DNA from: Halobacteroides halobius DSM 5150
GTDB lineage: Bacteria > Bacillota > Halanaerobiia > Halobacteroidales > Halobacteroidaceae
Reading direction: 5' to 3'
DNA length: 64,000 bases
Assembly (NCBI RefSeq): GCF_000328625.1
Contig: NC_019978.1
Location: 1,488,001 to 1,552,000 of the forward strand
The notes beneath the pieces are model-generated. The model worked only from the letters and a program-made list of their open reading frames with translations. It did not search any database and was not told the DNA's origin. Both the position numbers and the translations under genes were made by a program. This document shows, one piece after another, positions 36,974-58,191 of the stretch (its first letter is position 1; every line of letters starts with the position of its first letter).

Positions 36974-38167
36974 TTATTTGCCATACTTTTCTTTTAAATA
37001 ATAAGGCGCAACTATAGAAGTAAAAGAAATATAAATCCCAATTCCTAAACCAAAAAGCCCTAAACTTATAAAAAACCAACAAGTTCTTCGAAAATTTTCC
37101 TTGCTAAATTCAAAAATAGCTCCTAATCTTAATATAGGATAAAGTACAGGTAGTGGAACAATAAATGATAATTTAATTGAACCTTCTATTTCAGCAAAAA
37201 AAGCAACTACTCTAACACTACCAGAATCTCTTGTTCCCATCACTGCTGATGTTTCTGCTTCTACAGTAGCACCCTTCAATCCTAGGCTGAAATTATCACT
37301 TTCATATTTTACTTTGGCAATACTTGTATCTAAATTTGCACCTAAATCTGGTACGTTATCTTTCACTCCATCTTGAGTTACTTGAAAATCAAAGACTTCT
37401 TCAGTTATATTATTATGCTTACTACCAAACCCAGTATCAATTAAAACATCGTTATTATTAATTTTAGTATATTTCTTCATATTCTGTAATGAGTTATTAA
37501 AACTCTTCTTGGCTTTTTTTATTGATTTAGGAATATTATCTATTGACTTTTCTACTGATTTTTTAAGCTTATTATTTTTGCTATTTTGATCATCTGTTAT
37601 CTTTACAAATCTCAGATCTAATACTATATTTTCCTCCATTTGTAGATCTAACGGATCAATATAATTAATCGAATTAGCATTAACGTAAACATACCAATTA
37701 GTCCCGTCCTTGACTGGGTCAACTGTAATCCATCTCATACTCTGTGAATTATAGTGTCTGTAAGCAAAGTTCCAGGTTCCTAACTGATTACTATATCTCT
37801 GGCCAGTAAACCCAAATACATTCTGATTATGAGCACTGTGTTCAAACCAGCCATTATATGGATCACCATAAGCATCGTATTCATAACGTTCAACAGCCTG
37901 TCCATTTCGTCCACTAGTCATTGTTACAGATCCTAGTGCATCCTTGTGATAAAAGTTCAATCCCTTATTAGGATGCTTCGGCCACCAGCCACCGCTTACC
38001 TTTGGCTTTTTGAAGTAATTCATTGCAATTAGTTTACCTTCTGCATAATAATATTCACTAATCTTATTCATTTTTCCTGCATTTATGCGATTGTTTCCAT
38101 TATTTCCTTTTCTTTTAACTTTCATTTCATAGCCTTCAATAATGTTATGGCTCTTTCCATCATACAT
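36974..38167 (-). CDS. Orphan RHS tip 1: core end plus unique beta-rich/membrane C-terminus
   Basis: This 397-residue reading frame starts inside the RHS core (MYDGKSHNII) without a ribosome site. Residues 1-175 are nearly identical to the end of the full RHS core at 49026-55274, up to the NYIDPL hinge. The C-terminal part (about 176-397) is unique: a Lys-rich stretch, a beta-rich segment (SDNFSLGLKGATVEAETS) and two hydrophobic segments near the end (CWFFISLGLFGLGIGIYI). No partner gene follows; the GspK gene is next. Probably a silent donor tip. The frame continues upstream through the core repeat. Confidence 0.75.
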   Translation of the reverse strand: MYDGKSHNIIEGYEMKVKRKGNNGNNRINAGKMNKISEYYYAEGKLIAMNYFKKPKVSGGWWPKHPNKGLNFYHKDALGSVTMTSGRNGQAVERYEYDAYGDPYNGWFEHSAHNQNVFGFTGQRYSNQLGTWNFAYRHYNSQSMRWITVDPVKDGTNWYVYVNANSINYIDPLDLQMEENIVLDLRFVKITDDQNSKNNKLKKSVEKSIDNIPKSIKKAKKSFNNSLQNMKKYTKINNNDVLIDTGFGSKHNNITEEVFDFQVTQDGVKDNVPDLGANLDTSIAKVKYESDNFSLGLKGATVEAETSAVMGTRDSGSVRVVAFFAEIEGSIKLSFIVPLPVLYPILRLGAIFEFSKENFRRTCWFFISLGLFGLGIGIYISFTSIVAPYYLKEKYGK

Positions 38168-39196: not shown

Positions 39197-40213
39197 TTAA
39201 ATATCACTCTCGCCCTCTCCCTTTATATCTTCTTGTTTGTTTTTTCTAATATGTTTCTTTAATTTTTTCATTTCCTCTTTTGAAGACATAGCCAAATGTT
39301 TTTTAGCTGCCTTTTTCGCTTCTCTTTGTGGGGTTGTAAATTCGTTGACTGCATAACTAATTGTTCCTACTGTAACTCCTGTTCCTATAATTATTTTACT
39401 CCAGTTCGGACCATTACCGCCGCCATTACCATTATTAAAGAATTTTTTTAGTTTTCTCCCAAAATTCTTATCTAAACTAGTTAATGCGTCATTGTCTGGT
39501 AAAACTTCATCGAGAGCTACCTCATTATCTTTTTGTCTAGAAATATTTTGGATTGTTTTATTTTGCGAATTATTAGCTATTAAATATACACCATAACCAA
39601 CTGTTACTACTGAAGCAATGGTTTCTCCTACAGGAGTCGGTTCAGCTAAAGCAACAGTCCACATTGTTCCAAAAGCTCCTGTAGCATTTCTTCCATCAGG
39701 ATCTATATAATTTACTGGATCACTATAACAATACTGATACCAGTTAGTTCCATCCTTAACTGGATCCTTGGTTATCCAACGCATGCTGTTTGAATTATAG
39801 TGTCTGTAAGCAAAGTTCCAGGTTCCTAACTGATTACTATATCTCTGAGCAGTAAAGCCATAAGGATTTTGATTATGAGCACTGTGTTCAAACCAGCCAT
39901 TATATGGATCTCCATAAGCATCATATTCATAACGCTCAACAGCCTGTCCGTTTCTTCCGGTAGTCATTGTTACTGAACCTAGGGCATCCTGGTGGTAGAA
40001 ATTCAATCCCTTATTAGGATGTTTCGGCCACCAGCCGCCGCTTACCTTTGGCTTCTTGAAGTGATTCATTGCAATTAGTTTATCTTCTGCATAATAATAT
40101 TCACTAATTTTATTCATTTTTCCTGCATTTATGCGATTGTTTCCATTATTTCCTTTTCTTTTAACTTTCATTTCATAGCCTTCAATAATGTTATGGCTCT
40201 TTCCATCGTACAT
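39197..40213 (-). CDS. Orphan RHS tip 2: core end plus pre-toxin and GGGN-linker/hydrophobic tail
   Basis: This 338-residue frame starts inside the RHS core with no ribosome site. Residues 1-174 match the full RHS core up to YIDPDGR. Next comes a segment (TMWTVALAEPTPVGETIASV, about 182-201) almost identical in tip 3, then a variable stretch, a Gly/Asn linker (FNNGNGGGNGPN), a hydrophobic helix (KIIIGTGVTVGTISYAV) and a basic tail. No nuclease or other toxin motif is recognisable. The small membrane gene downstream is its likely immunity partner. Probably a silent donor. Confidence 0.72.
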   Translation of the reverse strand: MYDGKSHNIIEGYEMKVKRKGNNGNNRINAGKMNKISEYYYAEDKLIAMNHFKKPKVSGGWWPKHPNKGLNFYHQDALGSVTMTTGRNGQAVERYEYDAYGDPYNGWFEHSAHNQNPYGFTAQRYSNQLGTWNFAYRHYNSNSMRWITKDPVKDGTNWYQYCYSDPVNYIDPDGRNATGAFGTMWTVALAEPTPVGETIASVVTVGYGVYLIANNSQNKTIQNISRQKDNEVALDEVLPDNDALTSLDKNFGRKLKKFFNNGNGGGNGPNWSKIIIGTGVTVGTISYAVNEFTTPQREAKKAAKKHLAMSSKEEMKKLKKHIRKNKQEDIKGEGESDI

Positions 40214-41894: not shown

Positions 41895-41925
41895 AATTTT
41901 CCTCCTTTTTTATAAAAATTATAAT

Positions 41926-41954: not shown

Positions 41955-41974
41955 TGGGAACAGAATTTAAATTT

Positions 41975-43051
41975 TTATTTATTAGAAGATGACTCATCTT
42001 TAATTTGAGATTGTTGCATTTGAGGATGAGTAACATGATTTTGAGGATCAGGTTTATTATTTAGCTTTTCTAATTCTTTTTGACCCTTTATACAACCTTT
42101 AGTACCAAGTGTAATACCAACCACAGTACTTGTTCCAATTGCAACAGTCTTTTTAGCAATTTCCTTTAAATTTGGTCCATCATTATTATTATTACCTGAA
42201 CCTCCTCCCTTTTTAACATAATCAATCAAATTTTTAACCCCTTTTTCTTCACCCTGACCAGTAATTGTTCCATCTTCAGTCTTTCCTGGATTTACATTTT
42301 CTTTATCCGAAACATCTCTTAAATTATCTAAATTACTCTCTGGTAAAGGTTTATTCATTTTGTGTTTTTCATTTTCATCCAATCCTTTAGCTTTCTGCAT
42401 TTGGGAACTATTAGCTATTGAATATACACCATAACCAACTGTTACTACTGAAGCAATGGTTTCTCCTACAGGAGTCGGTTCAGCTAAAGCAACAGTCCAC
42501 ATTGTTCCAAAAGCTCCTGTAGCACTTCTCCCATCAGGATCTACTAAATTAACCGGATCAGCATTAACGTAAACATACCAATTAGTCCCGTCTTTGACTG
42601 GGTCAACTGTCATCCATCTCATACTCTGTGAATTATAGTGTCTATAAGCAAAATTCCAGGTTCCTAACTGATTACTATATCTCTGACCAGTAAAGCCATA
42701 AGGGTTCTGATTGTGAGCACTGTGTTCAAACCAGCCATTATATGGATCTCCATAAGCATCGTATTCATAACGCTCAACAGCCTGTCCATTTCGTCCAGTA
42801 GTCATTGTTACAGAACTTAGTGCATCCTTGTGATAAAAGTTCAATCCCTTATTAGGATGCTTCGGCCACCAGCCACCGCTTACCTTTGGCTTTTTGAAGT
42901 AATTCATTGCAATTAGTTTACCTTCTGCATAATAATATTCACTAATTTTATTTATTTTTCCTGCATTTATGCAATTGTTTCCATTATTTCCTTTTCTTTT
43001 AACTTTCATTTCATAGCCTTCAATAATGTTGTGGCTCTTTCCATCGTACAT
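41975..43051 (-). CDS. Orphan RHS tip 3: core end plus pre-toxin and GGGN-linker/hydrophobic tail
   Basis: This 358-residue frame starts in the RHS core without a ribosome site. Residues 1-175 match the full core (to NLVDPDGR). The following pre-toxin segment (TMWTVALAEPTPVGETIASV) is almost identical to tip 2, and the tail then diverges: an acidic variable stretch, ITGQGEEKG, a Gly/Asn linker (KKGGGSGNNNNDGPN), a hydrophobic helix (KKTVAIGTSTVVGITLGTKG) and a polar end. ITGQGEEKG and the linker recall the main RHS tip (VTGQDEEKG). The membrane-TPR gene follows. Confidence 0.73.
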   Translation of the reverse strand: MYDGKSHNIIEGYEMKVKRKGNNGNNCINAGKINKISEYYYAEGKLIAMNYFKKPKVSGGWWPKHPNKGLNFYHKDALSSVTMTTGRNGQAVERYEYDAYGDPYNGWFEHSAHNQNPYGFTGQRYSNQLGTWNFAYRHYNSQSMRWMTVDPVKDGTNWYVYVNADPVNLVDPDGRSATGAFGTMWTVALAEPTPVGETIASVVTVGYGVYSIANSSQMQKAKGLDENEKHKMNKPLPESNLDNLRDVSDKENVNPGKTEDGTITGQGEEKGVKNLIDYVKKGGGSGNNNNDGPNLKEIAKKTVAIGTSTVVGITLGTKGCIKGQKELEKLNNKPDPQNHVTHPQMQQSQIKDESSSNK

Positions 43052-43873: not shown

Positions 43874-44013
43874 TTCTTAACCAATATTGTGTTCTGTCCA
43901 ATGGACAATACATTTTACTTTAGTTCGAAGATATAATTGTATTTTATTCCATTTTATTACTATTTATTTTTTTCTACAATATCTCTTTATTATTTCTTAA
44001 ATACACTTTAATT
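43874..44013. other. AT-rich spacer between the tip 3 core and the PH-domain gene
   Basis: I see no gene, repeat end or clear promoter here; it marks the outer breakpoint of the tip 3 copy. Confidence 0.5.
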
Positions 44014-44586
44014 CTACGAATCATTGAATTCTTTTATAAAATCCACAATTTCTTTTGCATTTTTTATATCTTTTAAGAATAAGAATTCATTATTAATTGG
44101 AACTAAAAAATCAATTCCAAATATAATACGACTTGACTCCATAAAAGATAATTCATTTCCTAATTTTATACTACCAATTCCATTAGATGCTATATTTTTA
44201 CTGGCAATTTTAATATCGCTAATATTAGCAACTTGTATAATCTCATTTCTCAATCCTTTTATTATAATAATAATTCTTTTATCTGTTACAATATATTGTG
44301 TATTTCTTTTTTTAATAATTCTATAAATCAATCTACCCAAACTAAAATAAAAACCTACACATAAAAAATACCCACCGCCGAAAAATGTGATTAATTTAAT
44401 AATAATCCACATTTCACCTCGGATTGTAAAAAAGTAAATAACTAAACCTCCAAGAATAAAAATGATTATACCAACAATTATCATAAATATATTTATCAAA
44501 ATATAAAAAATATTTAAATTTTTTATAGTAAATTGTGGTTTCTCAGACCACATAATCTCCTCATTCTTATTTAATATAGAGTGCAT
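44014..44586 (-). CDS. Bacterial PH-domain (bPH2-like) membrane protein
   Basis: This 190-residue protein has two N-terminal hydrophobic segments (about 28-52 and 60-82) followed by a PH-like domain with NTQYIVTDKRIIIIIKG and ISDIKIASKNIASNGIGSI, as in bPH2/YdbT-like proteins. The N-terminal ILNKNEEIMWSEKP is also typical. It is paralogous to the split gene at 44661-46693. It starts about 10 bases after AAAGGAG. It lies downstream of orphan tip 4 and may be one of its partners, or a genome-typical envelope protein carried along. Confidence 0.72.
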   Translation of the reverse strand: MHSILNKNEEIMWSEKPQFTIKNLNIFYILINIFMIIVGIIIFILGGLVIYFFTIRGEMWIIIKLITFFGGGYFLCVGFYFSLGRLIYRIIKKRNTQYIVTDKRIIIIIKGLRNEIIQVANISDIKIASKNIASNGIGSIKLGNELSFMESSRIIFGIDFLVPINNEFLFLKDIKNAKEIVDFIKEFNDS

Positions 44587-44660
44587 TATAATAAAATTTC
44601 TCCTTTCATTTAATTTTATAGCTGAATAATAAAATAATCATATAGAATCCTTAAATTAAT

Positions 44661-44895
44661 TCAATCGTTAGTATCCTTATTATTCTCTATGATTTCAAAT
44701 ATATTTTCAATTGGTTCAATATTATAAAACACAATCGAAGGATTCTCTTTATACACATCGCCAAATTTATAAAAAAAATCAAACCCAGTATATATATATA
44801 AAGAACACAAATCTACATCTATAAAATCTGAACTTTCAAATCTTATAGTCATTTTACCATTAGAATGCATAATTCTACTTAACCCATCTATATAG
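44661..44895 (-). pseudogene. 3' half of an IS-split PH-domain gene
   Basis: Reading on from the IS edge, GYIDGLSRIMHSNGKMTIRF continues the PH-like domain interrupted at 46279, in the position of IASNGIGSIKLG in the intact paralogue at 44014-44586. It ends FEIIENNKDTND. On its own this piece lacks the domain start and a ribosome site, so I treat it as the lost C-terminal half. Confidence 0.78.
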
Positions 44896-44967
44896 CCCCC
44901 TAACTGACTTGTAGAAATCGTTTGTTAGTAGTATAATGGAAATAATTTAAAATTAGGGGGACTAAAA

Positions 44968-45279
44968 ATGCCTAGAACAAAGTATTCTGACGAACTTAAA
45001 AAGCAAGTGGTAGAAGAATGCAGACAGATAGATAATATTTCTTTAGTAGCTCGGCGCCATGAAATTTCTAAAAGCACTGTTTATGCTTGGGTTAAAAAAG
45101 CTCGTAAGACAGGTTCTGTTAACTCATTACCAAAGGATCAAAAGAAAAAGCTCAAAGAAACTTCTAAAAGATTAGAGAAAGTAAGTTCTGAAAATGATCA
45201 GCTAAAGAAATTACTTGCTGAAAAAGAACTAGAATTAGCTATTTTAAGAGATTTAAGAGATCAATCAAACCCGCAGTAA
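44968..45279 (+). CDS. IS3-family transposase OrfA
   Basis: This 103-residue protein has an N-terminal helix-turn-helix (YSDELKKQVVEECRQ...LVARRHEISKSTVYAWVKK) and a C-terminal leucine-zipper-like stretch (EKVSSENDQLKKLLAEKELE), the usual OrfA layout. It binds the IS ends. The ribosome site is TAGGGGGACTAAAA. The orfB frame is -1 relative to it and is open across the overlap, so an OrfAB fusion by -1 frameshifting is possible, as in other IS3 elements; I did not pin down the slip site. Confidence 0.9.
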   Translation: MPRTKYSDELKKQVVEECRQIDNISLVARRHEISKSTVYAWVKKARKTGSVNSLPKDQKKKLKETSKRLEKVSSENDQLKKLLAEKELELAILRDLRDQSNPQ

Positions 45280-45287
45280 CCGACAGA

Positions 45288-46223
45288 GTGAAGGTTGCAA
45301 TAAAGTGGATAAAGAAAGGTTACAAGATAGCTACAGTTTTAGACTTTGTCGGTTTATCAGAATCCACTTATTATTATAATATTAATCATAATAGCGAAGA
45401 TGATAATAGCTCAAATAATCCTAATGGTAGACCTATCCCTGGCTATTCTTATAGCTATGCTGGTGAAAAAGTCTCAGATGAACAGATAAAAGAATGGTTA
45501 TTAGAATTAGTTGCAGGTGATGGTTTTCCTTATGGTTATAAGAAATTAACTACTTGTCTAAAGGAAGATTATATGCTTAAAATCAACCATAAAAAGGTAT
45601 ATAGATTGTGCAAAGAGCTTGATATATTAAGACCTCAAAGAAAGATAAAGAATCGTCACCCTAGAAGGTTAGCTAAGAGAGACGAGATTAGTAATTCTAA
45701 TCAACTTTGGGAGATGGATCTTAAATATGGTTATATCACTGGAACAGATCAATTCTTCTTTCAGTTATCAGTAATAGATGTCTTTGATAGGTCAATAATT
45801 GACTACCATTTAGGTTTAAGTTGTAAAGCTGAAGATGCCTGCAGAGTATTAAAAAAGGCTCTTGCTAAAAGAGAATTAACTAAAGGTATGGATTTACCTG
45901 TTATAAGAACAGATAATGGTCCACAGTTTACATCTAAACTCTTTGGTAGTACTTGTCAATCTCTAGGCATGAAGCATCAAAAAATACCAGTAAAAACTCC
46001 GAATATGAATGCTCATATTGAATCATTCCACTCTATATTAGAAGATGAATGTTATAGTCGTAATGAATTTCAAAGTTATATAGAGGTCTATGAGATTGTT
46101 AGTGAGTATATGAGATATTATAATAACAGGCGTAGACATGGTAGTTTAAATAACCAAGCTCCAACTCAATATTATCGAGCTGTTAAAGATAAAAAGATTA
46201 AGCCTGAAGTCTTTATTGCATAA
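45288..46223 (+). CDS. IS3-family transposase OrfB (DDE integrase domain)
   Basis: This 311-residue protein has an HTH_21-like region (FPYGYKKLTTCLKEDYML) and an rve DDE core: first Asp in LWEMDLKYGYI, second Asp in VIRTDNGPQFTS and Glu in MNAHIESFHSILEDE. The end RRRHGSLNNQAPTQYY is typical. The listed start is a GTG; the frame is open further upstream into orfA, so the real product is probably made as a frameshift fusion. All catalytic residues are present. Confidence 0.92.
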   Translation: MKVAIKWIKKGYKIATVLDFVGLSESTYYYNINHNSEDDNSSNNPNGRPIPGYSYSYAGEKVSDEQIKEWLLELVAGDGFPYGYKKLTTCLKEDYMLKINHKKVYRLCKELDILRPQRKIKNRHPRRLAKRDEISNSNQLWEMDLKYGYITGTDQFFFQLSVIDVFDRSIIDYHLGLSCKAEDACRVLKKALAKRELTKGMDLPVIRTDNGPQFTSKLFGSTCQSLGMKHQKIPVKTPNMNAHIESFHSILEDECYSRNEFQSYIEVYEIVSEYMRYYNNRRRHGSLNNQAPTQYYRAVKDKKIKPEVFIA

Positions 46224-46270
46224 AATAAGAAGTTACGAATGATTGAGTATGATATAGATTTTCTCCAATA

Positions 46271-46693
46271 TTAGGGGGTTAAGCCGCCATTAATCCTATT
46301 AATATCTATCTTTTCTACTAGCTTCTTATAAGTATCAGTTAAAACAATAATTTTATCATTTGTTATTGCATAGTATGTGTTTTTCATTTTCCATTTTTTA
46401 TAAATAAACCTACCCAAGAATACATAAAAAGAAATTATTAAAATAATTAGACTAATAAACATAATAAACACATTTACTAATTCACTTTCAGATAAACTAA
46501 TAGTAATATCTAAAAATATACTCAATATGCTCACTATGAAAACAAATAAAACTCCAATATTAAGTAACAAAGCTGCAATACTAATTGGAAATAAATACAT
46601 TTCCCTTCTATCAAAAAGTAAACCTTTGTGAGGCTGTCCTATCCATAAAATTCTCTCATCTTTAGATAAATAACTTTTAAATAATGATTCCAT
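46271..46693 (-). pseudogene. 5' half of an IS-split PH-domain gene
   Basis: This piece encodes the N-terminus SYLSKDERILWIGQPHKG, two membrane segments (about 33-58 and 71-95) and the start of a PH-like domain (NTYYAITNDKIIVLTD...KIDINRINGG), then runs into the IS end and stops (LTP). The domain continues at 44895. The ribosome site AAGGAGGAGTTGA is strong. It directly follows the decayed tip 4, with a perfect palindrome between, so the original gene may have been the tip 4 immunity partner. Confidence 0.78.
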
Positions 46694-46720
46694 TCAACTC
46701 CTCCTTATATAATACTTTTT

Positions 46721-46760
46721 AACAACAATAGGTGCTTGATATCAAGCACCTATTGTTGTT
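46721..46760. terminator. Perfect 40-base palindrome between tip 4 and the PH-domain gene
   Basis: Exact 20-base arms with no loop, centred at 46740/46741, lie 4 bases past the last tip 4 stop codon and just before the PH-domain ribosome site. Confidence 0.8.
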
Positions 46761-46764
46761 AATT

Positions 46765-47551
46765 TTAATTATCACATTTATTTTTTGAATTAATATTTCT
46801 CTTCATTTTTTCAATTTCTTCTCTTGGAATATTTAATTTATCTTCTATTATATTCATCATTTCAGTTTTTTCTAATTTTTCCAAAGCCTCTTTTATTTAG
46901 TTTCCATATTTTTCATTAAGATTCACCCCAAAGTTTTTCATTTCTTCTTCAGTTATAATCCACGTATGTCCAACCATTCCATGGACTTCAGGTAAGGGAA
47001 TACCAGCATCTATTGCACTGGAAACACCTACAACTCCCCCTGATCCAATACTAATATCTCCAGATGGTAATGCTGGAATATATGGATTATCTAAATCTAA
47101 TCCTACATTTCCTCCCTAACCTTCTAATTTATTTATAGTATCTGCATTAGTGAATTCTACTCCTACTCCTCCAGAAGCATTTGGAAAACCACCTCCGCCA
47201 GAAACATTTATTGCAACTCCCCAATTATTATTATCATCTACAACAACTTTAGAGGATACATCCCCTGCCAAACCAGCAGCTATTGAGCCTTCAACACCTA
47301 AAGCAAAAGTCCATAACCCTAATGGATCAATTCGATTAACAGGATCAGCATTAACATACTGATACCAGTTAGTTCCATCCTTGACTGGATCCTTGGTTAT
47401 CCAACGCATGCTATTTGAATTATAATGTCTATAAGCAAAGTTCCAAGTTCCTAACTGATTACTATATCTCTGACCAGTAAAGCCATAAGGATTTTAATTA
47501 TGAGCACTATGTTCAAACCAGCCATTATATGGATCTCCATAAGCATCATAT
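46765..47551 (-). pseudogene. Orphan RHS tip 4, decayed
   Basis: The frame begins inside the RHS core (YDAYGDPYNGWFEHSAHN), passes the hinge NRIDPLGL and enters a Gly-rich, beta-rich tip (VSGGGGFPNASGGVGVEF), then PEVHGMVGHTWIITEEEM and a helical end. Three in-frame stops break it: TAA at 47494-47496 (CAA in the full gene), TAG at 47116-47118 and TAA at 46897-46899; reading continues to a final stop at 46765. An intact sub-frame runs 47116-47409. Core homology is short here (about 230 bases). The tip differs fully from the others. Confidence 0.8.
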
Positions 47552-47590: not shown

Positions 47591-48922
47591 TCACTTAACT
47601 TTTTGAGTTAATATTTGTTCTACTTCTTCTTTATTTAAATCTATCTCTTCCCAACCATATATTTCAATAAAATCAGATTTGATTTCTATAGCTTTTCTAT
47701 AAAATTCTTTAGCACCTTCTATATTATCCTGTTTAATATTTACTATAATTAGCCAATAATAAGAGTCTAATCTTTCTTCTACTTTATCCGATCCAATTCC
47801 TTTCATAAAAGTTTCTTTTGCCTTTTCTAAATCATTAACTTCAAAATACATTATTCCTAAGAAAATTAACCCTTTATAATATCTACCATAATTCTCTAAA
47901 TCCAATTCTAACAATTCTTCTAAATAAGAAATAGCTTTATTATATTCACTTTTAATATCATATATCTTGGCTATATTCCAAAGATTGGCTAAATGAAATT
48001 CTTCCTTCTTATCTTCCTCATTCGCACAATCATATGCTTTCAAATAATATCGTAACGCTTTATCTTCCATTTTTAATTGGTCATAATCATACCCAAGACT
48101 ATGTAATACTTTTGTCTCATTTGGATGTAATCTATTTCTTTCTTCTAAATATTTAATAGATTTTTCTAATTGCCCTTCATTTTCATATATTCTTGCTATT
48201 TCCCATAAAGTAACTTTACAATCATCAGTATCTATATTATCATTCTCTTTAAAATACTTATATGCCTTTAAATAATATTCTAATCCTTTATCACTCTTTC
48301 CTAATTCATCATATGCCTCTCCTATTCTACAATAGACAAATCCATAAATTGAAGATTCATTCTCTAATAAAAGTAATGTTTTATTAAATTCTTTTATTGC
48401 CTTTTCAAATATATCTAATTCTAAATATATTACTCCTCGCCAATAGTATAGCTTATAATTTTTGGGATAATATTTTACTGCTTTATTTAAATATTTTAGA
48501 GCTAAATTATACTTCTTCTCATCAAAGTTTTGTATACCTTTTTCATAATATTTTTGTGATTGCTTTTTTAATCTTTTATTTACTAAAGAAATAGCTTTCC
48601 AAACAAAAACACATACTGCTAACACAAAAATTAAATTTCCTATTATAATAGATTGAAGATTAAAAAAATCACTAATGTATTTTGTAGATATAATAGTTAA
48701 AATTGCAAAAACATTACATACAATATCGTATAAAAATGTATTTATTCTAGTAACTTTAAGAATATAGAAATAAAAAGTATATGATATAACACTTAAAATA
48801 AAAAAACAACTAATGTAAATTGAAAAACTACTTACTACTCCTTTCCATAATAAAAACATCATTACTAGCCAACTGGTAAGATAACCAGTCATTATAATAA
48901 ATAAATTTTTTTGACTAAACAA
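47591..48922 (-). CDS. Membrane-TPR protein, candidate immunity for the main RHS protein
   Basis: This 443-residue protein has four N-terminal membrane helices (about 8-122) and a C-terminal array of TPR units, for example LALKYLNKAVKYYPKNYKLY, YCRIGEAYDELGKSDKGLEYY and ALRYYLKAYDCANEED. It is paralogous to the protein at 40560-41894. It starts at TTG after GGAGG, about 100 bases downstream of the full-length RHS gene, with a perfect palindrome between. In RHS loci the gene immediately after the toxin tip usually encodes its immunity protein, so I infer that role. Confidence 0.7.
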   Translation of the reverse strand: MFSQKNLFIIMTGYLTSWLVMMFLLWKGVVSSFSIYISCFFILSVISYTFYFYILKVTRINTFLYDIVCNVFAILTIISTKYISDFFNLQSIIIGNLIFVLAVCVFVWKAISLVNKRLKKQSQKYYEKGIQNFDEKKYNLALKYLNKAVKYYPKNYKLYYWRGVIYLELDIFEKAIKEFNKTLLLLENESSIYGFVYCRIGEAYDELGKSDKGLEYYLKAYKYFKENDNIDTDDCKVTLWEIARIYENEGQLEKSIKYLEERNRLHPNETKVLHSLGYDYDQLKMEDKALRYYLKAYDCANEEDKKEEFHLANLWNIAKIYDIKSEYNKAISYLEELLELDLENYGRYYKGLIFLGIMYFEVNDLEKAKETFMKGIGSDKVEERLDSYYWLIIVNIKQDNIEGAKEFYRKAIEIKSDFIEIYGWEEIDLNKEEVEQILTQKVK

Positions 48923-49025: not shown

Positions 49026-52000
49026 TCACTTTTTACCTTCCTCTACAATTTGATTTTGATTACTATTTTTATATTCTTCCGGTTTTTTTATTTCTTCTTC
49101 TGGTTTTGATAATTGGAATAAATCTGCAATAGGTTTAAGCATAAGATTTCCAGCAACAGATCCTAATGTTCCTACTGTAATTATAGTTGTTACTGGTTTC
49201 TCTTTAACTACTTTGGCTATATTCTTAGCTGTACCTTTAATTTTCTTTACTATTCCATCATCATCATTATTATTGTTAAATCCATTTCCTCCTCCATTTT
49301 TAAGATTATTACCCAGGACTATAGTACCCTTTTCTTCATCTTGTCCTGTTACTGAATCATCAGTACTATTCCCAGTCACATCTGGTGCTGGATCATCAAC
49401 TTGTTCTAATTTCCCTTGCGAATCTTTAGTTTGATTATTAACTTTTTCTTTAGCTTCTCGACTCCCCCAGTTATCAATAACTTTTCTACCTGAATTATAT
49501 ACTTGTGGTCCATATTCAATTATTCCTAAACCACCTACAATTATGGCATATGCTGCATCGCCAAAAGGTAAAAATGGGCTATCAGCCATAGGTAACCAAG
49601 ATAAACCGGCAGCTGCTTTAAAAGTTGTAGCATCTAATCCCAACGGATCTATATAATTTACTGGATCACTATAACAATACTGATACCAGTTAGTTCCATC
49701 CTTAACTGGATCCTTGGTTATCCAACGCATGCTGTTTGAATTATAGTGTCTGTAAGCAAAGTTCCAAGTTCCTAACTGATTACTATATCTCTGACCAGTA
49801 AAGCCATAAGGATTTTGATTATGAGCACTGTGCTCAAACCAGCCGTTGTACGGCTTACCATAAGCATCATATTCATAACGCTCAACAGCCTGTCCGTTTC
49901 TTCCGGTAGTCATTGTTACTGAACCTAGGGCATCCTGGTGGTAGAAATTCATTCCCTTATTAGGATGTTTCGGCCACCAGCCGCCGCTTATCTTTGGCTT
50001 CTTGAAGTAATTCATTGCAATTAGTTTACCTTCTGCATGATAATATTCACTAATTTTATTCATTTTTCCTGCATTTATGCGATTATTTCCATTATTTCCT
50101 TTTCTTTTAACTTTCATTTCATAGCCTTCAATAATGTTATGGCTCTTTCCATCGTACATATACCGCTGAGTTTCTTGCCATGCCCCTTGTAGAGGATCTA
50201 CTGTTTTTTCTATCTTTCTACCTAAAGCATCATACTTATATCTGACTTCTCCTTCAAATGGTCGCCTGCTGTTGAAGAAGTGAGGGTAGTTGCTGTTATT
50301 TCTAGCTCTGACTAATCTATTGTTATAATTGTATTCATATTCGGCTGATAAGTCTCCTAGCTGTTCCTTAATTAAGTTACCATTGGCATCATAGTCATAT
50401 TTTCTCTGACCGGCTTGGACTAACTGGTTGCTTTGGTTATAGGCGTAGGTGATTTGGCCCCAGCCATTTTGTTTAACTACTACATTGCCTGCTGGGTCAT
50501 AGCTGAATTCTTCTGTCCAGTAACCACTATTCAGTGGATCAATATTAAAAGAACCGCCTTTTGCAACCTTATCATATAAGCTATCAATTTTATCTTCTTG
50601 CTCCATACTGACATCTAATTCTGTTACAAATGGTAGTGCGTTTTCTCCTTGATCTAATCTTAAGGTTCCTTCTCCGCCGGAGCTGCTGCCTATAGAGTCT
50701 AAATTATTTTCTAATTGATCTCGTAAATTACTTTCTTCACTCCATATCATATCATGATTAAAGTTTAACTGATAATCAGTCGGATCGCCAACTTTTGAAA
50801 GTAATCCAAAGTATTTTCTTTCTTTAAGGTCAGCTAGTTTCTTCTTATCTCTAAATGGATAGTGTACTTTCTTTAGCCGACCTACTGGATCATACTGATA
50901 AGCTTGTAATTCTCCACTTCCTTCTATTTGGAATTTCCGTTGGCCGTTGGCATTATAGATATAGCCGTAAGATTCAAGTAGCTTCCTACCACCGCCTCGT
51001 TTAGTCCAGTGTTTAATAGTTTTTATTCTACCACGGTCAGTATATTGGTAGTTAGTTCCTGTACCATTGCTATTTACCTTTTCTACTACTCTATTTAACT
51101 CATCATATTTATATTTGACTTTTCCGCCGTCTGGTAAACTTACCTTAGTTAATCTGTTTAATTGATCATATTGATAAGTTAGTTCTCTGGTAGTATCTCT
51201 TAATCCATCCTGGATACTCATTTTGGTTCGTTTTCCTACAGCGTTATAATTATACTTAATTACTCTACTATCTTTTTCCTGCTTATTATTAACTTTTACC
51301 TTGACTAATCTTGATAGTTTATCATACTGGAATGTCTGTTGTGCATGAGAATTAATTGCTTTAGTTAAGTTACCTACTGCGTCATATTGATATTCTTTCT
51401 TAGTTTTTCCTTCAAATGCTACTTTTACTAGTCGATTCAATTTATCATAATTATAGGTAGTAGTTTGTCCCTTAAAGTCTGTTTTCTCTACCAAATTACC
51501 GTTAGCATCATATTCGTAAGTCTGCTTCTCTCCTTGATAATTAATCTCTGCTGTTAGTCTATCTAATTCATCATACTTATAATGATAGGTATTACCGTTT
51601 TTATTGGTCATTGCTACTTTATTACCATTTGGATCATACTCATATTTTACTTTGTTATTGAGTGCATCCACAATCGCTATTCGACGGTTAAGTTGATCGT
51701 AATTATATTCTGTCACATTACCTTCTTTATCTATTTTCTTAACTAAGTTACCTGCCTGGTCGTACTTATATTTAACAGCTTTTCCTTTAACATCAATCAC
51801 TTTTGTTAGTTGTCCTAAACCATTATATTTATACTTCACTCTATTTCTGAGAGCATCTTCTTTCCAGGCTACCTTACCTAGCTCATTATAGCCGAATTTA
51901 GTAGTATTACCTAATTCATTTTTAATCTGAACTAATCGATTTAATTTATCATATTTATAGGTGATTTTTACTCCCGCCTCATTAATCATGACTACTAAAT

Positions 52001-55000
52001 TATCAGCGGCATCATATTCATACTTTTTGACTTCTCCTAAAGCATTTTCTTTTCTAATTAATCTACCTTTTAAGTCATAGCTATATTTAGTTACATTACC
52101 TTTAGGATCAACTTTTTGTACTAAATTACCGGCGTCATCATACTCAAAAGTAGTTTCTTTTCCTTTTGGATTTATTTTCTTAACTAATCTATCTCGTTTA
52201 TCATATTTGTATTCAGTCTCATTACCTTTAGGATCTACTTTCTTGATCAAATTGCCAGCTGCATCATATTCATACTGGACTGTCTCTCCTAAAGCATTAG
52301 TTACCTTGGTTACTCTTCCTCTACTATCATACTGAAAGATAGTAGTATTTCCTTTCTTATCTGTTATTGATTTGATCTGTCCTTCTGGAGAATAGTCATA
52401 ACTAACAGTATTTCCTAACGGATCTATCTTTCTAATCCTTCTATTTAAGTCATCATAAACAAACTGGGTAGTATTTCCCTTACCGTCAGTAATTGCTGTT
52501 ACATTGCTAGCGGCATCATATTCATACTCAGTAGTGACACCTGTTTCTACTTGTTTTTTTCTCACTAATCTATCTAAATTATCATATTTATATATATAAT
52601 GAACATTTTCAGAAATAACCTTACGGGTTAAATTCTCTGCTGCATCATACTCAAACTTTCTTACATTACCTTTTCCATCCTTTATTGCTTTTAAGTTATT
52701 TCGATTATCATATTTATATTCTATTTTATTTCCTCGAGCATCTATCTTAATAGTTACTTTGCCGCGAGAGTTATATTTATACTTTTTTGTATTTCCTAAC
52801 TGATCCACAATTTTAGTTACTTTGTTATTGGCATTATAACTATAGTTTATTGTACCTCCTTTAGGTCCAGTTTTCTTCAATAATCTGCCTACTTTATCAT
52901 ATACAAACTTTTCTTTACTACCATCAGGATAAATTTTCTCCTTAATATTGCCATAGTCATCATACTTATATTGAATCGTATTTCCTCTTGGATTAATTTC
53001 TTTAACCACCAGGTCAGCTTGATTATACACTAATCTACGGCTTGTCCCGTCTGGATAAGTAATTCTAGTTAAATTTCCATTATTATCATAGCTATAAGTA
53101 GTTGTATTACCATTCTTATCAGTTACAGAAGTTACTTTATTAAATTGATTATAAGTAAAACTAATCGTATTTCCTTTAGGATCAGTAATACTAGTAATAT
53201 TATTGTTACTATCATAAGTATAGCTTGTTCTATTACCTCTTTTATCTATAACTGCAACTAAATTATTTTGACTATCATATTCTTTTTGTACTCGATTATA
53301 ATTAGGGCCAACTGTTTCTTCTGTCAAATAATCTTCATTATAAATATAAATAGTAGAGTGACCTCGTCTATCAGTTACAATTGTTCTCTGACTATCTTTA
53401 TTATATTCAAATTCAAACTTGGCCTCGCTACTATCTACCTGATAGTCCACCACCCATTTACCATTAAGCTGCTGATAATAATAGGTCCAACTGTCACCAT
53501 TCGGATAAATTAACTTAGTTAAGTGATCCTCATTGTATTCATATCTTCTAGTGTTGCCGGCAGGATCAGTATAAGCAACTAATTTATCTTCGCGATAATT
53601 ATAGAAATGTTTTCTTCCAATAGGATCAGTAATACTTACTATTTTACCATTAACTCGATCTATCTTAACCGTACGCCCGAAGCTATCTTTAATTTCAACC
53701 AACTCATGTTTTTTATTATACTTAAATTTAAGATATCTTTCAGTTGGTTTTTCAATTTTTTTAAGCTTACCAAAATAGGAGTAGTAATAAACTGTCTTAT
53801 CTTTTTTAGTTAATTTATAGGTGCCATCCGATAAAATTTCTAGTTTATCATCTGTTGGTTTTACTGCTTGAGTAGAACTCCCTTTTGGATAATAGTTCTT
53901 TCTTCCATCAGAAAATTTAATATCTGCATCATAGTCAGGTTTCTTGTCTATTTTATAAATATGTGGAATCCCAGATTCATCTATCAATATTACTCGGCGA
54001 GTTCCAATTTCATCTCTTTCTAGATTAGTGGACCAATCAACATTATACTGATTACGATAATGAGCTGCTTCAGAATATTCCTTATCTAATTGTGCCTCTT
54101 GTGCTAACTCTCTAACTTTGTTTTTTATTTTTTTAAGTTTCTCTATTAATTGGTGTTTCTTCTTTACGGTCTTTCGCCATGATTGAGTTTTACTCAATTG
54201 ATTTTGAGCTGCATTTAACATTTTTTCAGATTCTCTTACCATTCTTTTAGCTGAATCTAAAGCATCCCAAGCGTTACTTAAAGCAGTTTCTGCTTCATTA
54301 TAACTTTCTTCGGCTTCATCTTGTTCAGCAGTAATATCTTCTTCTAAAAACTCTAAATCAGTAATTAATATTTTAATTTTTTCTTCTAAATCAGTTGCTC
54401 TTCCTTTAGCTGTTACTGCATTTTGTTTAGCAATTTTAGCATTTTTCTTTAGTCGTTTCGCATTATCTAGAGCAGACTGAGCTTCTCTTTCCAACGTAGA
54501 ATTACCATCAGTTGAGTTAAGGGCTTCTTTAGCTTTTAAAATTGCTGTATCTGCTTTATTAATTGCTGTATCAGCCATATTTTTAGCAGTAGCAACTTTA
54601 TCCTTGGCCTTTCTAGCTTCTTCAATAGCCTGTTGAAAATAATACAAAGCGTTAGAAGCAATCAGTTCAGCTTCTTCTGCATCTTCCTTTCCATTCTGGG
54701 CAGCCTTTACAGCTTTTTTAGCTAACCCCTTAGCTTTTTTCGCCTTTTCCAAAGCTTTACTAGCATGAACCACAGCTTCCTGGGCTCGTTTTAGAGCTTT
54801 CTCGGATAAGCTTTTCGCTCTTTGATAATCTTTTACTGCTTTTTGATAATAATCCTCTAACTGACTGGCAAACTTACTTAACTTCCTAGCAACTTCTTTA
54901 TAATCAGGTCTAACCCCCATAATTATTCGAGTATCATAATTAAAATTCCAACCTTTTCCAAAGGAAAAACTATTTTGATTAAAACTACCATAATTTCTAA

Positions 55001-55274
55001 CCACTTTAAAATGAGGAGTTACATTCTTTATTACTAAATCAGTACTCTTACTTATATATTCTCCGGTAGAGTATCTTACTGGATCACCTGCAGTTTCACC
55101 ATCTTTGTGCCCGGTTCTAGTATTGACTCCCTTTATTATTTTCAACTTTTGTTTTGACTTTTGATTTAATAAATCTTGAGTTATATTTTCAGTTTTACTT
55201 CCTTTTTTGTAACTATTTCCTACTTCCTTAACTTTATTTTTGGATTTTTGTTCTTTTCTTTTCTTCTCCTTCAT
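49026..55274 (-). CDS. Full-length RHS/YD-repeat polymorphic toxin
   Basis: This 2082-residue protein has a DUF6531-like N-terminus (TGEYISKSTDLVI...GKGWNFNYDTRI, to about 118), an Ala/Lys/Glu-rich coiled coil (about 122-405), some 40 YD repeats (about 415-1640, pattern YxYDxxGNLxxxxDxxG) that should form a hollow beta shell, the RHS core end (YRHYNSNSMRWITKDP...NYIDPLGL, to about 1878) and a 204-residue tip. The tip has LPFGDAAYAIIVGGLG, VTGQDEEKG, a Gly/Asn linker (NGGGNGFNNNNDDDG) and a hydrophobic helix (KPVTTIITVGTLGSVAG). No known toxin motif is visible. The ATG has no ribosome site and overlaps the upstream gene by 41 bases. Confidence 0.93.
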   Translation of the reverse strand: MKEKKRKEQKSKNKVKEVGNSYKKGSKTENITQDLLNQKSKQKLKIIKGVNTRTGHKDGETAGDPVRYSTGEYISKSTDLVIKNVTPHFKVVRNYGSFNQNSFSFGKGWNFNYDTRIIMGVRPDYKEVARKLSKFASQLEDYYQKAVKDYQRAKSLSEKALKRAQEAVVHASKALEKAKKAKGLAKKAVKAAQNGKEDAEEAELIASNALYYFQQAIEEARKAKDKVATAKNMADTAINKADTAILKAKEALNSTDGNSTLEREAQSALDNAKRLKKNAKIAKQNAVTAKGRATDLEEKIKILITDLEFLEEDITAEQDEAEESYNEAETALSNAWDALDSAKRMVRESEKMLNAAQNQLSKTQSWRKTVKKKHQLIEKLKKIKNKVRELAQEAQLDKEYSEAAHYRNQYNVDWSTNLERDEIGTRRVILIDESGIPHIYKIDKKPDYDADIKFSDGRKNYYPKGSSTQAVKPTDDKLEILSDGTYKLTKKDKTVYYYSYFGKLKKIEKPTERYLKFKYNKKHELVEIKDSFGRTVKIDRVNGKIVSITDPIGRKHFYNYREDKLVAYTDPAGNTRRYEYNEDHLTKLIYPNGDSWTYYYQQLNGKWVVDYQVDSSEAKFEFEYNKDSQRTIVTDRRGHSTIYIYNEDYLTEETVGPNYNRVQKEYDSQNNLVAVIDKRGNRTSYTYDSNNNITSITDPKGNTISFTYNQFNKVTSVTDKNGNTTTYSYDNNGNLTRITYPDGTSRRLVYNQADLVVKEINPRGNTIQYKYDDYGNIKEKIYPDGSKEKFVYDKVGRLLKKTGPKGGTINYSYNANNKVTKIVDQLGNTKKYKYNSRGKVTIKIDARGNKIEYKYDNRNNLKAIKDGKGNVRKFEYDAAENLTRKVISENVHYIYKYDNLDRLVRKKQVETGVTTEYEYDAASNVTAITDGKGNTTQFVYDDLNRRIRKIDPLGNTVSYDYSPEGQIKSITDKKGNTTIFQYDSRGRVTKVTNALGETVQYEYDAAGNLIKKVDPKGNETEYKYDKRDRLVKKINPKGKETTFEYDDAGNLVQKVDPKGNVTKYSYDLKGRLIRKENALGEVKKYEYDAADNLVVMINEAGVKITYKYDKLNRLVQIKNELGNTTKFGYNELGKVAWKEDALRNRVKYKYNGLGQLTKVIDVKGKAVKYKYDQAGNLVKKIDKEGNVTEYNYDQLNRRIAIVDALNNKVKYEYDPNGNKVAMTNKNGNTYHYKYDELDRLTAEINYQGEKQTYEYDANGNLVEKTDFKGQTTTYNYDKLNRLVKVAFEGKTKKEYQYDAVGNLTKAINSHAQQTFQYDKLSRLVKVKVNNKQEKDSRVIKYNYNAVGKRTKMSIQDGLRDTTRELTYQYDQLNRLTKVSLPDGGKVKYKYDELNRVVEKVNSNGTGTNYQYTDRGRIKTIKHWTKRGGGRKLLESYGYIYNANGQRKFQIEGSGELQAYQYDPVGRLKKVHYPFRDKKKLADLKERKYFGLLSKVGDPTDYQLNFNHDMIWSEESNLRDQLENNLDSIGSSSGGEGTLRLDQGENALPFVTELDVSMEQEDKIDSLYDKVAKGGSFNIDPLNSGYWTEEFSYDPAGNVVVKQNGWGQITYAYNQSNQLVQAGQRKYDYDANGNLIKEQLGDLSAEYEYNYNNRLVRARNNSNYPHFFNSRRPFEGEVRYKYDALGRKIEKTVDPLQGAWQETQRYMYDGKSHNIIEGYEMKVKRKGNNGNNRINAGKMNKISEYYHAEGKLIAMNYFKKPKISGGWWPKHPNKGMNFYHQDALGSVTMTTGRNGQAVERYEYDAYGKPYNGWFEHSAHNQNPYGFTGQRYSNQLGTWNFAYRHYNSNSMRWITKDPVKDGTNWYQYCYSDPVNYIDPLGLDATTFKAAAGLSWLPMADSPFLPFGDAAYAIIVGGLGIIEYGPQVYNSGRKVIDNWGSREAKEKVNNQTKDSQGKLEQVDDPAPDVTGNSTDDSVTGQDEEKGTIVLGNNLKNGGGNGFNNNNDDDGIVKKIKGTAKNIAKVVKEKPVTTIITVGTLGSVAGNLMLKPIADLFQLSKPEEEIKKPEEYKNSNQNQIVEEGKK

Positions 55275-55794
55275 CAGATTTATTATTAGATTTTTCAGTT
55301 TTATTTTTTGCAGTCCTTACTTTTTCTTTACCTTCTTCTGTTAAATTTTCACTTTCTTTACTGGCTTCATGAGAAGAATTTGGTCTTGTATGACCACATA
55401 CAGTACACTTATCTTTTTCAATACTGCTATCATATTTATAAGTATGTTTTTCTTTCTCTTCATTCTCCCAAGAGCAAGAATTAAGGCTTGTAGAAGCAGT
55501 ACATTCAACTTTTCGATAATGATAAGTATCATCACCTGATTTTGAAGACCATGATCCATATTTTTTGGAATGAGCTTTTCCAGTTTTATCTACTCCTTCT
55601 ATATAGTCACAATTTGAAATACTACAAACCTTATCAGCAGTATAGTACCAATGTTCTTCACTATCTTTACCTATAATCCAAGGAGCAGCATCCACTAAAT
55701 CATGTTCATGGTTAGCTATTACTTTATTGCCCCCTACCATAATTATTAATAAACTTAGTCCTAACATAATTAAAGCATACTTCCATTTACTCAT
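55234..55794 (-). CDS. Small secreted Cys-containing protein upstream of RHS
   Basis: This 186-residue protein has a signal peptide (residues 6-27), a middle region with paired cysteines (CSISNC, CTAS, CSWENE, CTVCGHTRP) that may bind metal or form disulfides, and a long Lys/Glu-rich tail. It starts after AAAGGGGCTTATT. Its last 41 bases overlap the RHS frame in the +1 register within a purine-rich tract, and both frames have similar Lys/Glu-rich sequence there. It may once have been, or may still be by frameshifting, the secretion leader of the RHS protein. Confidence 0.68.
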   Translation of the reverse strand: MSKWKYALIMLGLSLLIIMVGGNKVIANHEHDLVDAAPWIIGKDSEEHWYYTADKVCSISNCDYIEGVDKTGKAHSKKYGSWSSKSGDDTYHYRKVECTASTSLNSCSWENEEKEKHTYKYDSSIEKDKCTVCGHTRPNSSHEASKESENLTEEGKEKVRTAKNKTEKSNNKSDEGEEKKRTKIQK

Positions 55795-55869: not shown

Positions 55870-56850
55870 TTACTTATAATCAAATTTCATTTTAACTGAT
55901 TGAAATTCTTCGTAACAATGCCCAGCTTTATCATATAAATATCCTTTAACGTGCCACCTATACTTATTTCCAGTAACCCACTTATCAGCATCATTTTCTG
56001 TAACTTGTAGTACATATTGGGGGATTGATAAATTATTGCTATTAAGAGTAAACAAACTAGACCAATAGCTATTAGCCTTGTCCCAGTGTGATAAATTAAA
56101 ACTATAAGTTACTATTCCATCAATTTCTTCCCAATTAAAAGTAGGATTTGATTTTGTTACTGAATCTTTAGGGCCAATTAAATTTAATTTATGGTATATT
56201 ATTTGCTTAGTAAATTGCCTTGTTACTTTTCCTTTACTATTAAAAACTTTAACTTTAATTTTATACTTTTTATTTAAATTAAATATATCTTCTACATATA
56301 CATTTCCATCTAACCAATAATCATTTTTATAGGCTTCAATTAAAATTTCTTTTCCATCTTTTATTCGAAATACTTTTACTTTATACTCACCACTTTTTAT
56401 TTTTTTAGCAATCTCACTAGATAAATTAACTTGTAAAATTGACACTAAATTACTACCCCCTCCTAAGTACCAAGATTTTAAATATATCCCGCCTATTTTA
56501 TCTTTTAATTCAGTTTTTATACTAGAGTTTTCTACTTTTACTTTATATTCTTTTGAATAATAATATTTATCTTTAATTTGCAAAGTATGGGTACCAGCTT
56601 TTACATTATTAAAAGTGAAATTACCATTTGTAGTTGTTACCTGGTATTTTTTATCATCTAGATAGACTACCGTTCTTCCCGGATTGTTATTACCTAACAC
56701 AGAAACCTCAACTTCCGGAAAATAGACTTGTCCATAAATATTTCCTGTTTCAGTCTTGTTAAAAGAACTAGAACAACCAGCTAGTCCTAATAACATGATG
56801 CTTAACATTACAAATACTATTTTTTTCTTTTTAATTTTATTGATTTCCAT
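55870..56850 (-). CDS. Surface lipoprotein with carboxypeptidase-regulatory-like domain
   Basis: This 326-residue lipoprotein has the lipobox LAGCSSS near residue 26. A beta-sandwich domain follows (GNIYGQVYFPEVEVSVL... NGNFTFNNVKAGTHTLQI, about 37-110), matching the carboxypeptidase regulatory-like fold, and then two further beta-rich parts ending GNKYRWHVKGYLYDKAGHC. It lies between the LRR lipoprotein and the RHS leader gene with short gaps, so all are probably one surface operon. Binding partner unknown. Confidence 0.65.
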   Translation of the reverse strand: MEINKIKKKKIVFVMLSIMLLGLAGCSSSFNKTETGNIYGQVYFPEVEVSVLGNNNPGRTVVYLDDKKYQVTTTNGNFTFNNVKAGTHTLQIKDKYYYSKEYKVKVENSSIKTELKDKIGGIYLKSWYLGGGSNLVSILQVNLSSEIAKKIKSGEYKVKVFRIKDGKEILIEAYKNDYWLDGNVYVEDIFNLNKKYKIKVKVFNSKGKVTRQFTKQIIYHKLNLIGPKDSVTKSNPTFNWEEIDGIVTYSFNLSHWDKANSYWSSLFTLNSNNLSIPQYVLQVTENDADKWVTGNKYRWHVKGYLYDKAGHCYEEFQSVKMKFDYK

Positions 56851-56874: not shown

Positions 56875-58191
56875 TTATTGCCAGGGCCATTTATAAATAA
56901 CTTGGACTCCTTTTTGCTTTAATTTGTTAATAACTTTCATATCTTCTGCCTCTTTTGATAAATCAAGGTTGTTTCCTCTAATATATACTTCTTTTAACTC
57001 ATTTAAATCTAATTTTAATAGAAAATCAATATTTTCTAGACCTAATTGACTAAGCCATAAAGTACTTAGGTTATTTATTCGAAGTATGTGTTCTTTTAAT
57101 TTTTCTAAATTACTAAAAGAATTTCTAGAAAGATTAAGCCAACTTAATTGTGAGATTCCTTTTAAGAAATCAACTCTATTAATTTTTAAATCAGTCAATG
57201 AAAGACGTTTTAAATTATTCATACTTTTCAATACTTTAGTTAGATCTTTTGATTCATCAACTGGAAGCTCTGATAAAGTCAAATATTTTAAATTATTCAA
57301 ATTAGATAAAGGGCTTATATCCTTTACTGGGAGATCATTAATAGTTATCCTTTTTAGATTAGTTAGCTGCGATAGAGTACTTATATCTGCAACTTTTCCA
57401 TTTTGTAAAGTAAATCTCTTTAATTTAGTGAAGTTTTCTATTCCTTTAATACTTTTAAGGCTAGAACTACTAATATTAAGTCTACTTAACTGACTTAAGT
57501 TGCTAATTTGAGAAAGTTCAGTCAACTGATGATTTTCTAAAGTAAGATCTTTAAGTTGAGTTAAAAGATCAAGCTGACTTATATCTTTAAGTTTTGTCTT
57601 TTCTCTAATTATTAGTTGCCTTAAATTATTACTTTTCGCTAATGGAAATAAATTTCCGGTGACTTTACTTTCTCGAATATCTAGGTAATTTAGATCGGGC
57701 ATAAATTGAAGCCCCTGGAAAGATTCTATTTCTACTCCTTCAATATTTAAAGATTTTACTCCATAAACATCTTCCTTTAAAATATTATTAGAGTGCTGAT
57801 TTAATTTTCCCCATTTTTGTAATTTTTTACGAAGTACTTGTTCAATATCATAATCCACAAAATTAAGTGTTTTCCCATCACTAAATACTGCTGTAATTGT
57901 TAAGTCCTGATCTAATACTAATTCACAATTTTTAACCTTTTTATTTAATTCATTAATCCCCTTACTGGACCATTTATTAAAAGAATACCCTTTTTTAGCA
58001 ACTGCTTTTAAAGTAATTGTAGCACCTTGTTTATAAGTATGAGTTCCTACTTTAGGAGTAATCTCTCCTTTACCAAGTTTATAAATTGTTAATTTAACTT
58101 TATTACTAGCTGCATTAGCTTCTAAACAACCAACTAAAACCAAACTTAACAGTAAAATCAAAGTTAAAGAAATTATTTTATCACCTTTCAT
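56875..58191 (-). CDS. Internalin-like leucine-rich-repeat lipoprotein
   Basis: This 438-residue lipoprotein has lipobox LVGCLEANA (Cys near 22), one bacterial repeat domain (GEITPKVGTHTYKQGATITL ... GYSFNKWS, about 43-105) and about 10 leucine-rich repeats of the SDS22/internalin kind (LTQLKDLTLENHQLTELSQI, about 150-430). LRR surface proteins bind protein partners. It is the first gene of the operon leading to RHS, with ribosome site GGGGTGATTAAAA. A role in target recognition or anchoring is possible but not shown. Confidence 0.8.
   Translation of the reverse strand: MKGDKIISLTLILLLSLVLVGCLEANAASNKVKLTIYKLGKGEITPKVGTHTYKQGATITLKAVAKKGYSFNKWSSKGINELNKKVKNCELVLDQDLTITAVFSDGKTLNFVDYDIEQVLRKKLQKWGKLNQHSNNILKEDVYGVKSLNIEGVEIESFQGLQFMPDLNYLDIRESKVTGNLFPLAKSNNLRQLIIREKTKLKDISQLDLLTQLKDLTLENHQLTELSQISNLSQLSRLNISSSSLKSIKGIENFTKLKRFTLQNGKVADISTLSQLTNLKRITINDLPVKDISPLSNLNNLKYLTLSELPVDESKDLTKVLKSMNNLKRLSLTDLKINRVDFLKGISQLSWLNLSRNSFSNLEKLKEHILRINNLSTLWLSQLGLENIDFLLKLDLNELKEVYIRGNNLDLSKEAEDMKVINKLKQKGVQVIYKWPWQ

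What the first reader, a model, noticed from the sequence alone, without database searches (positions are those of the whole stretch)
55234..55794. RHS may be made by frameshifting from an upstream secreted leader
The RHS ATG at 55274 has no ribosome site (the bases before it are AATAATAAATCTG) although neighbouring genes have strong ones. It overlaps by 41 bases a gene with a signal peptide, in the +1 register, within a purine-rich tract. The leader also supplies the export signal that RHS lacks. A programmed +1 shift, translational coupling or a single-base sequencing or mutational change would all join them into one exported protein, as in WapA.
Basis: partly seen in the sequence, partly recalled or inferred. 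Interest (0 to 1): 0.55.

Follow-up and report, generated by a model that had tools for sequence, protein, structure and literature searches.

The report
Exported RHS toxin gene, frame broken
A short secreted "leader" gene and the giant RHS gene behind it look like two halves of one exported toxin-type protein whose reading frame is broken by a one-base register change, most likely an ordinary recent mutation or a sequencing error and not a special decoding trick.

Summary
The RHS ATG at 55274 (minus strand) overlaps the leader gene (55234-55794) by 41 bases in the +1 register. It has the weakest ribosome site of 41 window genes of at least 150 aa. The RHS body has no signal peptide; the leader has one.

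In 6 of 7 related genes of the class, signal peptide, Cys-rich segment, charged linker, DUF6531 and RHS core lie in ONE open frame; the seventh has an in-frame TAA. Leader plus RHS is best read as one exported WapA-like RHS gene split inside its charged linker by a single register break, by codon usage at 55273-55234.

Nothing found supports a programmed +1 shift: no stop or rare A-site codon except the leader's own TAA, no downstream structure, no A run above six, no second genome with the break. RHS genes elsewhere are cut in the same stretch by plain stop codons (3 of 26 resolved loci).

Most likely the break is a recent indel or a sequencing error; these cannot be told apart here. The leader's Cys segment is only weakly similar to that of the relatives, so the fusion case rests on architecture and position.

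The parts
55234..55794 (-). Leader ORF, 186 aa: signal peptide, Cys/His-bearing segment, charged linker. Read as the N-terminal part of the split RHS gene.
   Evidence: ribosome site AAAGGGG at -7.4 kcal/mol
55234..55316 (-). 83-base stretch open in both registers; the break lies here, most likely within 55273-55234.
49026..55274 (-). RHS body ORF as called, 2082 aa: end of charged linker, DUF6531, alanine/lysine-rich coil-like insert, RHS/YD repeats, C-terminal tail. Start codon without ribosome site.
55870..56850 (-). Neighbouring lipoprotein-like ORF with CarboxypepD_reg-like domain (context only).
56875..58191 (-). Neighbouring lipoprotein-like leucine-rich-repeat ORF (context only).
47591..48922 (-). 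TPR protein with hydrophobic N-terminus directly behind the RHS tail; candidate immunity gene (inferred from position).
47116..47409 (-). Displaced (orphan) RHS C-terminal cassette.
41975..43051 (-). Orphan RHS C-terminal cassette, start MYDGKSHNIIEGYEMK.
39197..40213 (-). Orphan RHS C-terminal cassette; closest copy to the tail of the main gene (pS 0.076).
36974..38167 (-). Orphan RHS C-terminal cassette.

Best explanation
Leader and RHS are two pieces of one gene for a Sec-exported, WapA-like RHS polymorphic-toxin protein (signal peptide, Cys segment, charged linker, DUF6531, RHS shell, variable tail). A single register break lies in the A/purine-rich, loosely constrained linker, most likely within 55273-55234. 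The break is either a recent real indel, which leaves a 186-aa secreted stub and an RHS body that is poorly translated and not exported, or an error in the sequence of this one genome. Shown: the two ORFs, their register, the missing ribosome site, the fused relatives. Inferred: common origin of the leader with the relatives' N-termini, the recent date, export through Sec, antibacterial role.
For: (1) In the same class, 7 genes from 6 genomes share the RHS body: 38-51% identity in the N-terminal part for the 6 compared, plus L046, nearly identical to L048 by eye. In 6 of the 7 a signal peptide, Cys/His segment and charged linker run into DUF6531 in one open frame (L042, L043, L044, L045, L046, L048). 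The seventh (L047) is cut by an in-frame TAA. (2) Among 46 DUF6531 loci (18, 28 new ones), 26 have a resolved 5' end. 20 of the 26 carry a signal-peptide-like segment in the same frame; the own locus is the only one with such a segment in another register. (3) The RHS ATG has the worst ribosome site of 41 genes. (4) Codon usage supports the leader's register up to about 55273 and the RHS register afterwards; a switch upstream of the ATG has about 1% posterior in the pooled model and about 5% in the own-gene model. (5) Cuts in this stretch occur elsewhere: TAA in L047, TAG in L075, where L077 of the same genus is uncut, and TAG in L086. (6) Leader and RHS have no further stop. At 6.2% nonsense per substitution, fewer than about 47 neutral substitutions in 6.8 kb (under 0.7%) can have accumulated at the 95% level. 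(7) A survey of frame transitions assigns singleton breaks with intact homologues to indels or sequencing errors (PMC3711429, passages).
Against: The leader's Cys segment does not match the relatives' segment convincingly: hhalign probability 8.5%, E 0.004; leader 2.4 bits, reached by 46 of 2000 shuffles with one profile and by 1090 of 2000 with the narrower one; no hit in its own genome with the profile; AlphaFold pLDDT 49. The case therefore rests on architecture, position and the RHS body. No second genome with the same leader was found to show the unbroken state directly. The A runs are short (at most 6), which is not a strong hot spot. The long intact RHS ORF could also mean that it is still expressed.
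Confidence: 0.8

Rival explanations
1. Programmed +1 ribosomal frameshift (or +1 transcriptional slippage) in the A/purine tract joins leader and RHS at a set rate, controlling how much toxin is exported.
For: Right register; AAGGAG within the tract; several AAA codons can re-pair after a +1 slip (55257, 55248, 55308); both ORFs otherwise intact; RHS tail copies show purifying selection (pN/pS 0.15-0.25).
Against: No stop or rare codon in the A-site except the leader's own TAA; AGA is a common codon here (34.8 per 1000); no downstream structure beyond shuffles; longest A run is 6, while 7 were sufficient and the heading says required for +1 slippage in IS1447 (PMC6211511, abstract and outline) and 9 is the usual limit (PMC1088944, abstract). 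No relative has a register break at this place. No paper in the held library holds both 'Rhs' and 'programmed frameshift'.
Confidence: 0.05
2. Reversible ON/OFF switching of RHS export by replication slippage in the A-rich linker (phase variation).
For: Surface and secreted proteins are common targets (PMC3711429, passages); eight A runs of 4-6 within about 90 bases; breaks in the N-terminal stretch recur in other RHS genes.
Against: Runs of 4-6 As are short; the frame-transition survey used 7 or more (PMC3711429, passages). The window's minus strand has 95 runs of exactly 6 A and 48 longer ones. The other breaks are stop codons in frame, not run-length changes.
Confidence: 0.06
3. Two separate genes made by translational coupling: a secreted leader protein and a cytoplasmic RHS that starts at 55274.
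For: An ATG is present in the overlap; the RHS ORF is intact.
Against: The start lies 38 bases before the leader's stop; no ribosome site; RHS would lack an export signal; 20 of 26 resolved DUF6531 loci have a signal-peptide-like segment in frame; the fused relatives.
Confidence: 0.07

Closest known systems
WapA / Rhs polymorphic toxins of Gram-positive bacteria (PMC12704120, passages)
   Same: Signal peptide, YD/RHS repeats, variable C-terminal region, displaced C-terminal cassettes behind the main gene.
   Different: Here the signal peptide and the RHS body lie in different registers; no known wall-anchoring domain was found; a Cys/His segment is found instead.
Signal peptide-Cys segment-RHS genes of Halanaerobiales relatives (L042-L048)
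   Same: Same order of parts and a clearly related RHS body.
   Different: One open frame in 6 of 7; the seventh is cut by a stop codon, not by a register change.
prfB (+1 programmed frameshift), described in PMC5009743 (passages)
   Same: Short first ORF, long second ORF in the +1 register.
   Different: No UGA-type shift site with a closely placed Shine-Dalgarno-like element (details of the prfB site partly recalled); no conservation of the break.

Membership tests
WapA-like exported RHS polymorphic toxin | RHS/YD repeats | tested here: met
   PF05593 at 9.2e-163 with 24 stretches; DUF6531 at 7.9e-10
WapA-like exported RHS polymorphic toxin | N-terminal signal peptide on the RHS protein | tested here: not met
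   Not in the RHS frame as sequenced; present in the overlapping leader frame. Met in 6 of 7 relatives.
WapA-like exported RHS polymorphic toxin | Wall-anchoring N-terminal domain | tested here: not met
   No such Pfam domain in leader or RHS
WapA-like exported RHS polymorphic toxin | Variable C-terminal tail with displaced cassettes | tested here: met
   Five copies of the conserved RHS tail with different ends
WapA-like exported RHS polymorphic toxin | Toxic tail neutralised by the neighbouring gene | not testable with these tools
   Position only
Programmed +1 frameshift gene | Shift-prone site with stalled A-site (stop or rare codon) | tested here: inconclusive
   AAA to AAA re-pairing is possible; A-site AGA is common; the only stall is the leader's TAA, with an AAA to AAT mismatch
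Programmed +1 frameshift gene | Stimulatory structure or close upstream SD-like element | tested here: not met
   Folding no better than shuffles; AAGGAG lies about 30 bases before the stop
Programmed +1 frameshift gene | Conservation of the break in relatives | tested here: not met
   0 of 7 relatives
Programmed +1 frameshift gene | Junction-spanning protein product | not testable with these tools
   none

The most novel reading that the evidence does not exclude
The purine/A-rich linker is a genuine recoding site that sets what fraction of an RHS toxin receives a signal peptide, so that one gene yields a secreted leader protein plus a small dose of exported full-length toxin.
Probability: 0.05. 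Interest if true: 0.65.

Novelty: new member of a known kind. Interest (0 to 1): 0.2.

Why it matters
If the break is only an error or a recent mutation, the value is practical: the RHS start at 55274 should not be trusted, leader and RHS should be treated as one exported protein, and this genome may lack a working main RHS despite its row of spare tails. If the site were a real recoding or switching element, it would be a new way to meter export of a polymorphic toxin.

Tried and rejected
Looking for the same leader elsewhere to see the unbroken state: no hit beyond the own genome in 59 class genomes, genome contigs, plasmids or viral contigs. In the phylum sample it gave 4 of 398 genomes: two known relatives and two weak hits that were not followed up.

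Proving homology of the Cys segments by profile or by fold (pLDDT 49): inconclusive. No fold search was made with that model.

An older pseudogene: rejected because leader and RHS have no further stops. A second start inside RHS with a full ribosome site: none seen in the first kilobase; a partial one at 54773. Stimulatory RNA structure: none.

Literature: no paper in the library holds both 'Rhs' and 'programmed frameshift'. Searches for a genome paper of the suspected organism gave nothing used. The organism name (Halobacteroides halobius) is my recall from genome size and relatives; no call names the genome.

Limits: 20 of the 46 DUF6531 loci had no resolved 5' end and were left out of the count. 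One search listed further matches for which no locus was fetched. 'Signal-peptide-like' is a hydropathy threshold, not SignalP. One search was a faulty first version and is not used. L046 has a stop in the coil region about 135 bases from a contig end, and L043 and L048 run to contig ends, so 'one frame' for these means signal peptide through DUF6531 at least.

Full report
Observation. The leader ORF (55234-55794, minus strand, 186 aa) and the RHS ORF (49026-55274, minus strand, 2082 aa) are as described. They overlap by 41 bases with RHS in the +1 register; counting open frame, not start codon, the overlap is 83 bases, 55316-55234. The RHS ATG has no ribosome site: its pairing energy of +1.8 kcal/mol is the worst of 41 window genes of at least 150 aa, whose best starts have a median of -11.2, and about 97% of random positions do as well or better. 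The one other gene near zero is the orfB part of an IS3-like transposase pair (45288), a kind that is usually made by frameshifting (recalled). This overlap and the orfA/orfB overlap are the two longest same-strand overlaps of open frames in the window.

What it is. The RHS body carries DUF6531 and 24 RHS-repeat stretches. A class-wide search for DUF6531 (59 genomes, 11 with a match) led to seven genes in six other genomes with a clearly related body: 38-51% identity to the N-terminal part of the window RHS for the six compared by BLAST; L046 is nearly identical to L048 by eye. In six of these seven (L042, L043, L044, L045, L046, L048) one open frame runs from a signal peptide through a Cys/His-bearing segment and a long charged linker into the start motif of DUF6531 (GDPVRYTTGEYVS and variants). 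The seventh, L047, has the same order but an in-frame TAA in the Cys segment. L046 and L048 come from the same genus and are not independent; L046 has a later stop about 135 bases from a contig end; L043 and L048 run to contig ends. The window has the same order of parts (signal peptide, Cys/His segment, charged linker, GDPVRYSTGEYIS), but with a register change inside the linker.

Wider check. Of 46 DUF6531 loci examined (18, 28 new ones; one search listed more matches without loci), 26 had a resolved 5' end. In 20 of the 26 a signal-peptide-like hydrophobic segment is in the same frame. The six without it are the own locus, L030 (the same gene as L047), L075, L086, L022 and L078. L030, L075 and L086 are interrupted by an in-frame stop (TAA, TAG, TAG). 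In L075 the relative L077 from the same genus reads Trp at that place. The own locus is the only one in which a signal-peptide segment sits in another register directly upstream. The own genome's other DUF6531 gene (L040, 1887 codons) also has a signal-peptide-like segment in frame.

Weak point. The leader's Cys segment itself is not convincingly similar to that of the relatives. The alignment shares a few H and C columns, but profile comparison is weak (hhalign probability 8.5%). The leader's profile score is reached by 46 of 2000 shuffles with the broader profile and by 1090 of 2000 with the narrower one (full leader). The profile does not find it in its own genome. The predicted structure is unreliable (pLDDT 49). 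The claim of a split gene therefore rests on the order of parts, the immediate neighbourhood, the missing ribosome site and the missing export signal.

Where the break lies. Codon usage favours the leader's register down to about 55273 and the RHS register beyond. Switch points upstream of the RHS ATG together have about 1% posterior in the pooled model and about 5% in the own-gene model, and the peak is near 55264. The RHS ATG is therefore probably not a natural start.

Programmed or accidental. For a programmed +1 event one expects a slippery P-site codon before a slow A-site, often with a stimulator, and conservation. Several AAA codons could re-pair after a +1 slip, but the A-site codons are ordinary in this genome except for the leader's own TAA; downstream folding is no better than shuffles; the longest A run is 6. 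Seven As sufficed, and by the section heading were required, for +1 transcriptional slippage in IS1447 of Clostridium thermocellum (PMC6211511, abstract and outline), and nine is the usual limit in many genomes, though shorter runs may slip in some bacteria (PMC1088944, abstract and passages). A survey of frame transitions in prokaryotes treats singleton breaks with intact homologues as indels or sequencing errors and used runs of at least 7 for phase variation (PMC3711429, passages). No relative has the break. I therefore put about 0.05 on recoding, 0.06 on switching, 0.07 on two coupled genes and 0.8 on a simple lesion or sequence error in one ancestral gene.

Age. Neither ORF has another stop. 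With 6.2% of substitutions being nonsense, more than about 47 unselected substitutions in 6.8 kb would probably (95%) have left one. If the break is real and inactivating, it is recent. RHS tail copies in the locus differ mostly at synonymous sites (pN/pS 0.15-0.25), so the RHS sequence was under selection until recently.

Setting. Behind the main gene lie four displaced RHS C-terminal cassettes (47116-47409, 41975-43051, 39197-40213, 36974-38167) that share about 73-95% DNA identity in the best 300 bases of the conserved tail and differ at the end, with membrane-type or TPR proteins between them as immunity candidates. This is the usual layout of Rhs/WapA loci with orphan cassettes (PMC12704120, passages).

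Verdict. Ordinary but useful: an exported RHS gene that reads as two ORFs because of one register break.

Noticed in passing
36974-47409 (-): Row of four displaced RHS C-terminal cassettes with different ends, three starting with the same MYDGKSHNIIEGYEMK, plus broken RHS remnants at 43325-43696.
   Followed up: partly
47591-48922 and 40560-41894 (-): Two similar-looking TPR proteins with hydrophobic N-termini, each directly behind an RHS tail; candidate immunity proteins.
   Followed up: partly
44932-46223 (+): IS3-like element inserted between the RHS cassettes; orfA/orfB overlap in another register and orfB has no ribosome site.
   Followed up: partly
   Followed up: yes
   Followed up: partly
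L040 7694-15943 (own genome, about 1.196-1.204 Mb): Second RHS gene with a signal peptide in frame, followed by RHS fragments.
   Followed up: partly
L042-L048: Subfamily of RHS proteins with signal peptide, Cys/His segment and long acidic linker, seen here in 6 other class genomes; no Pfam name was found for the window's version of the Cys segment.
   Followed up: partly
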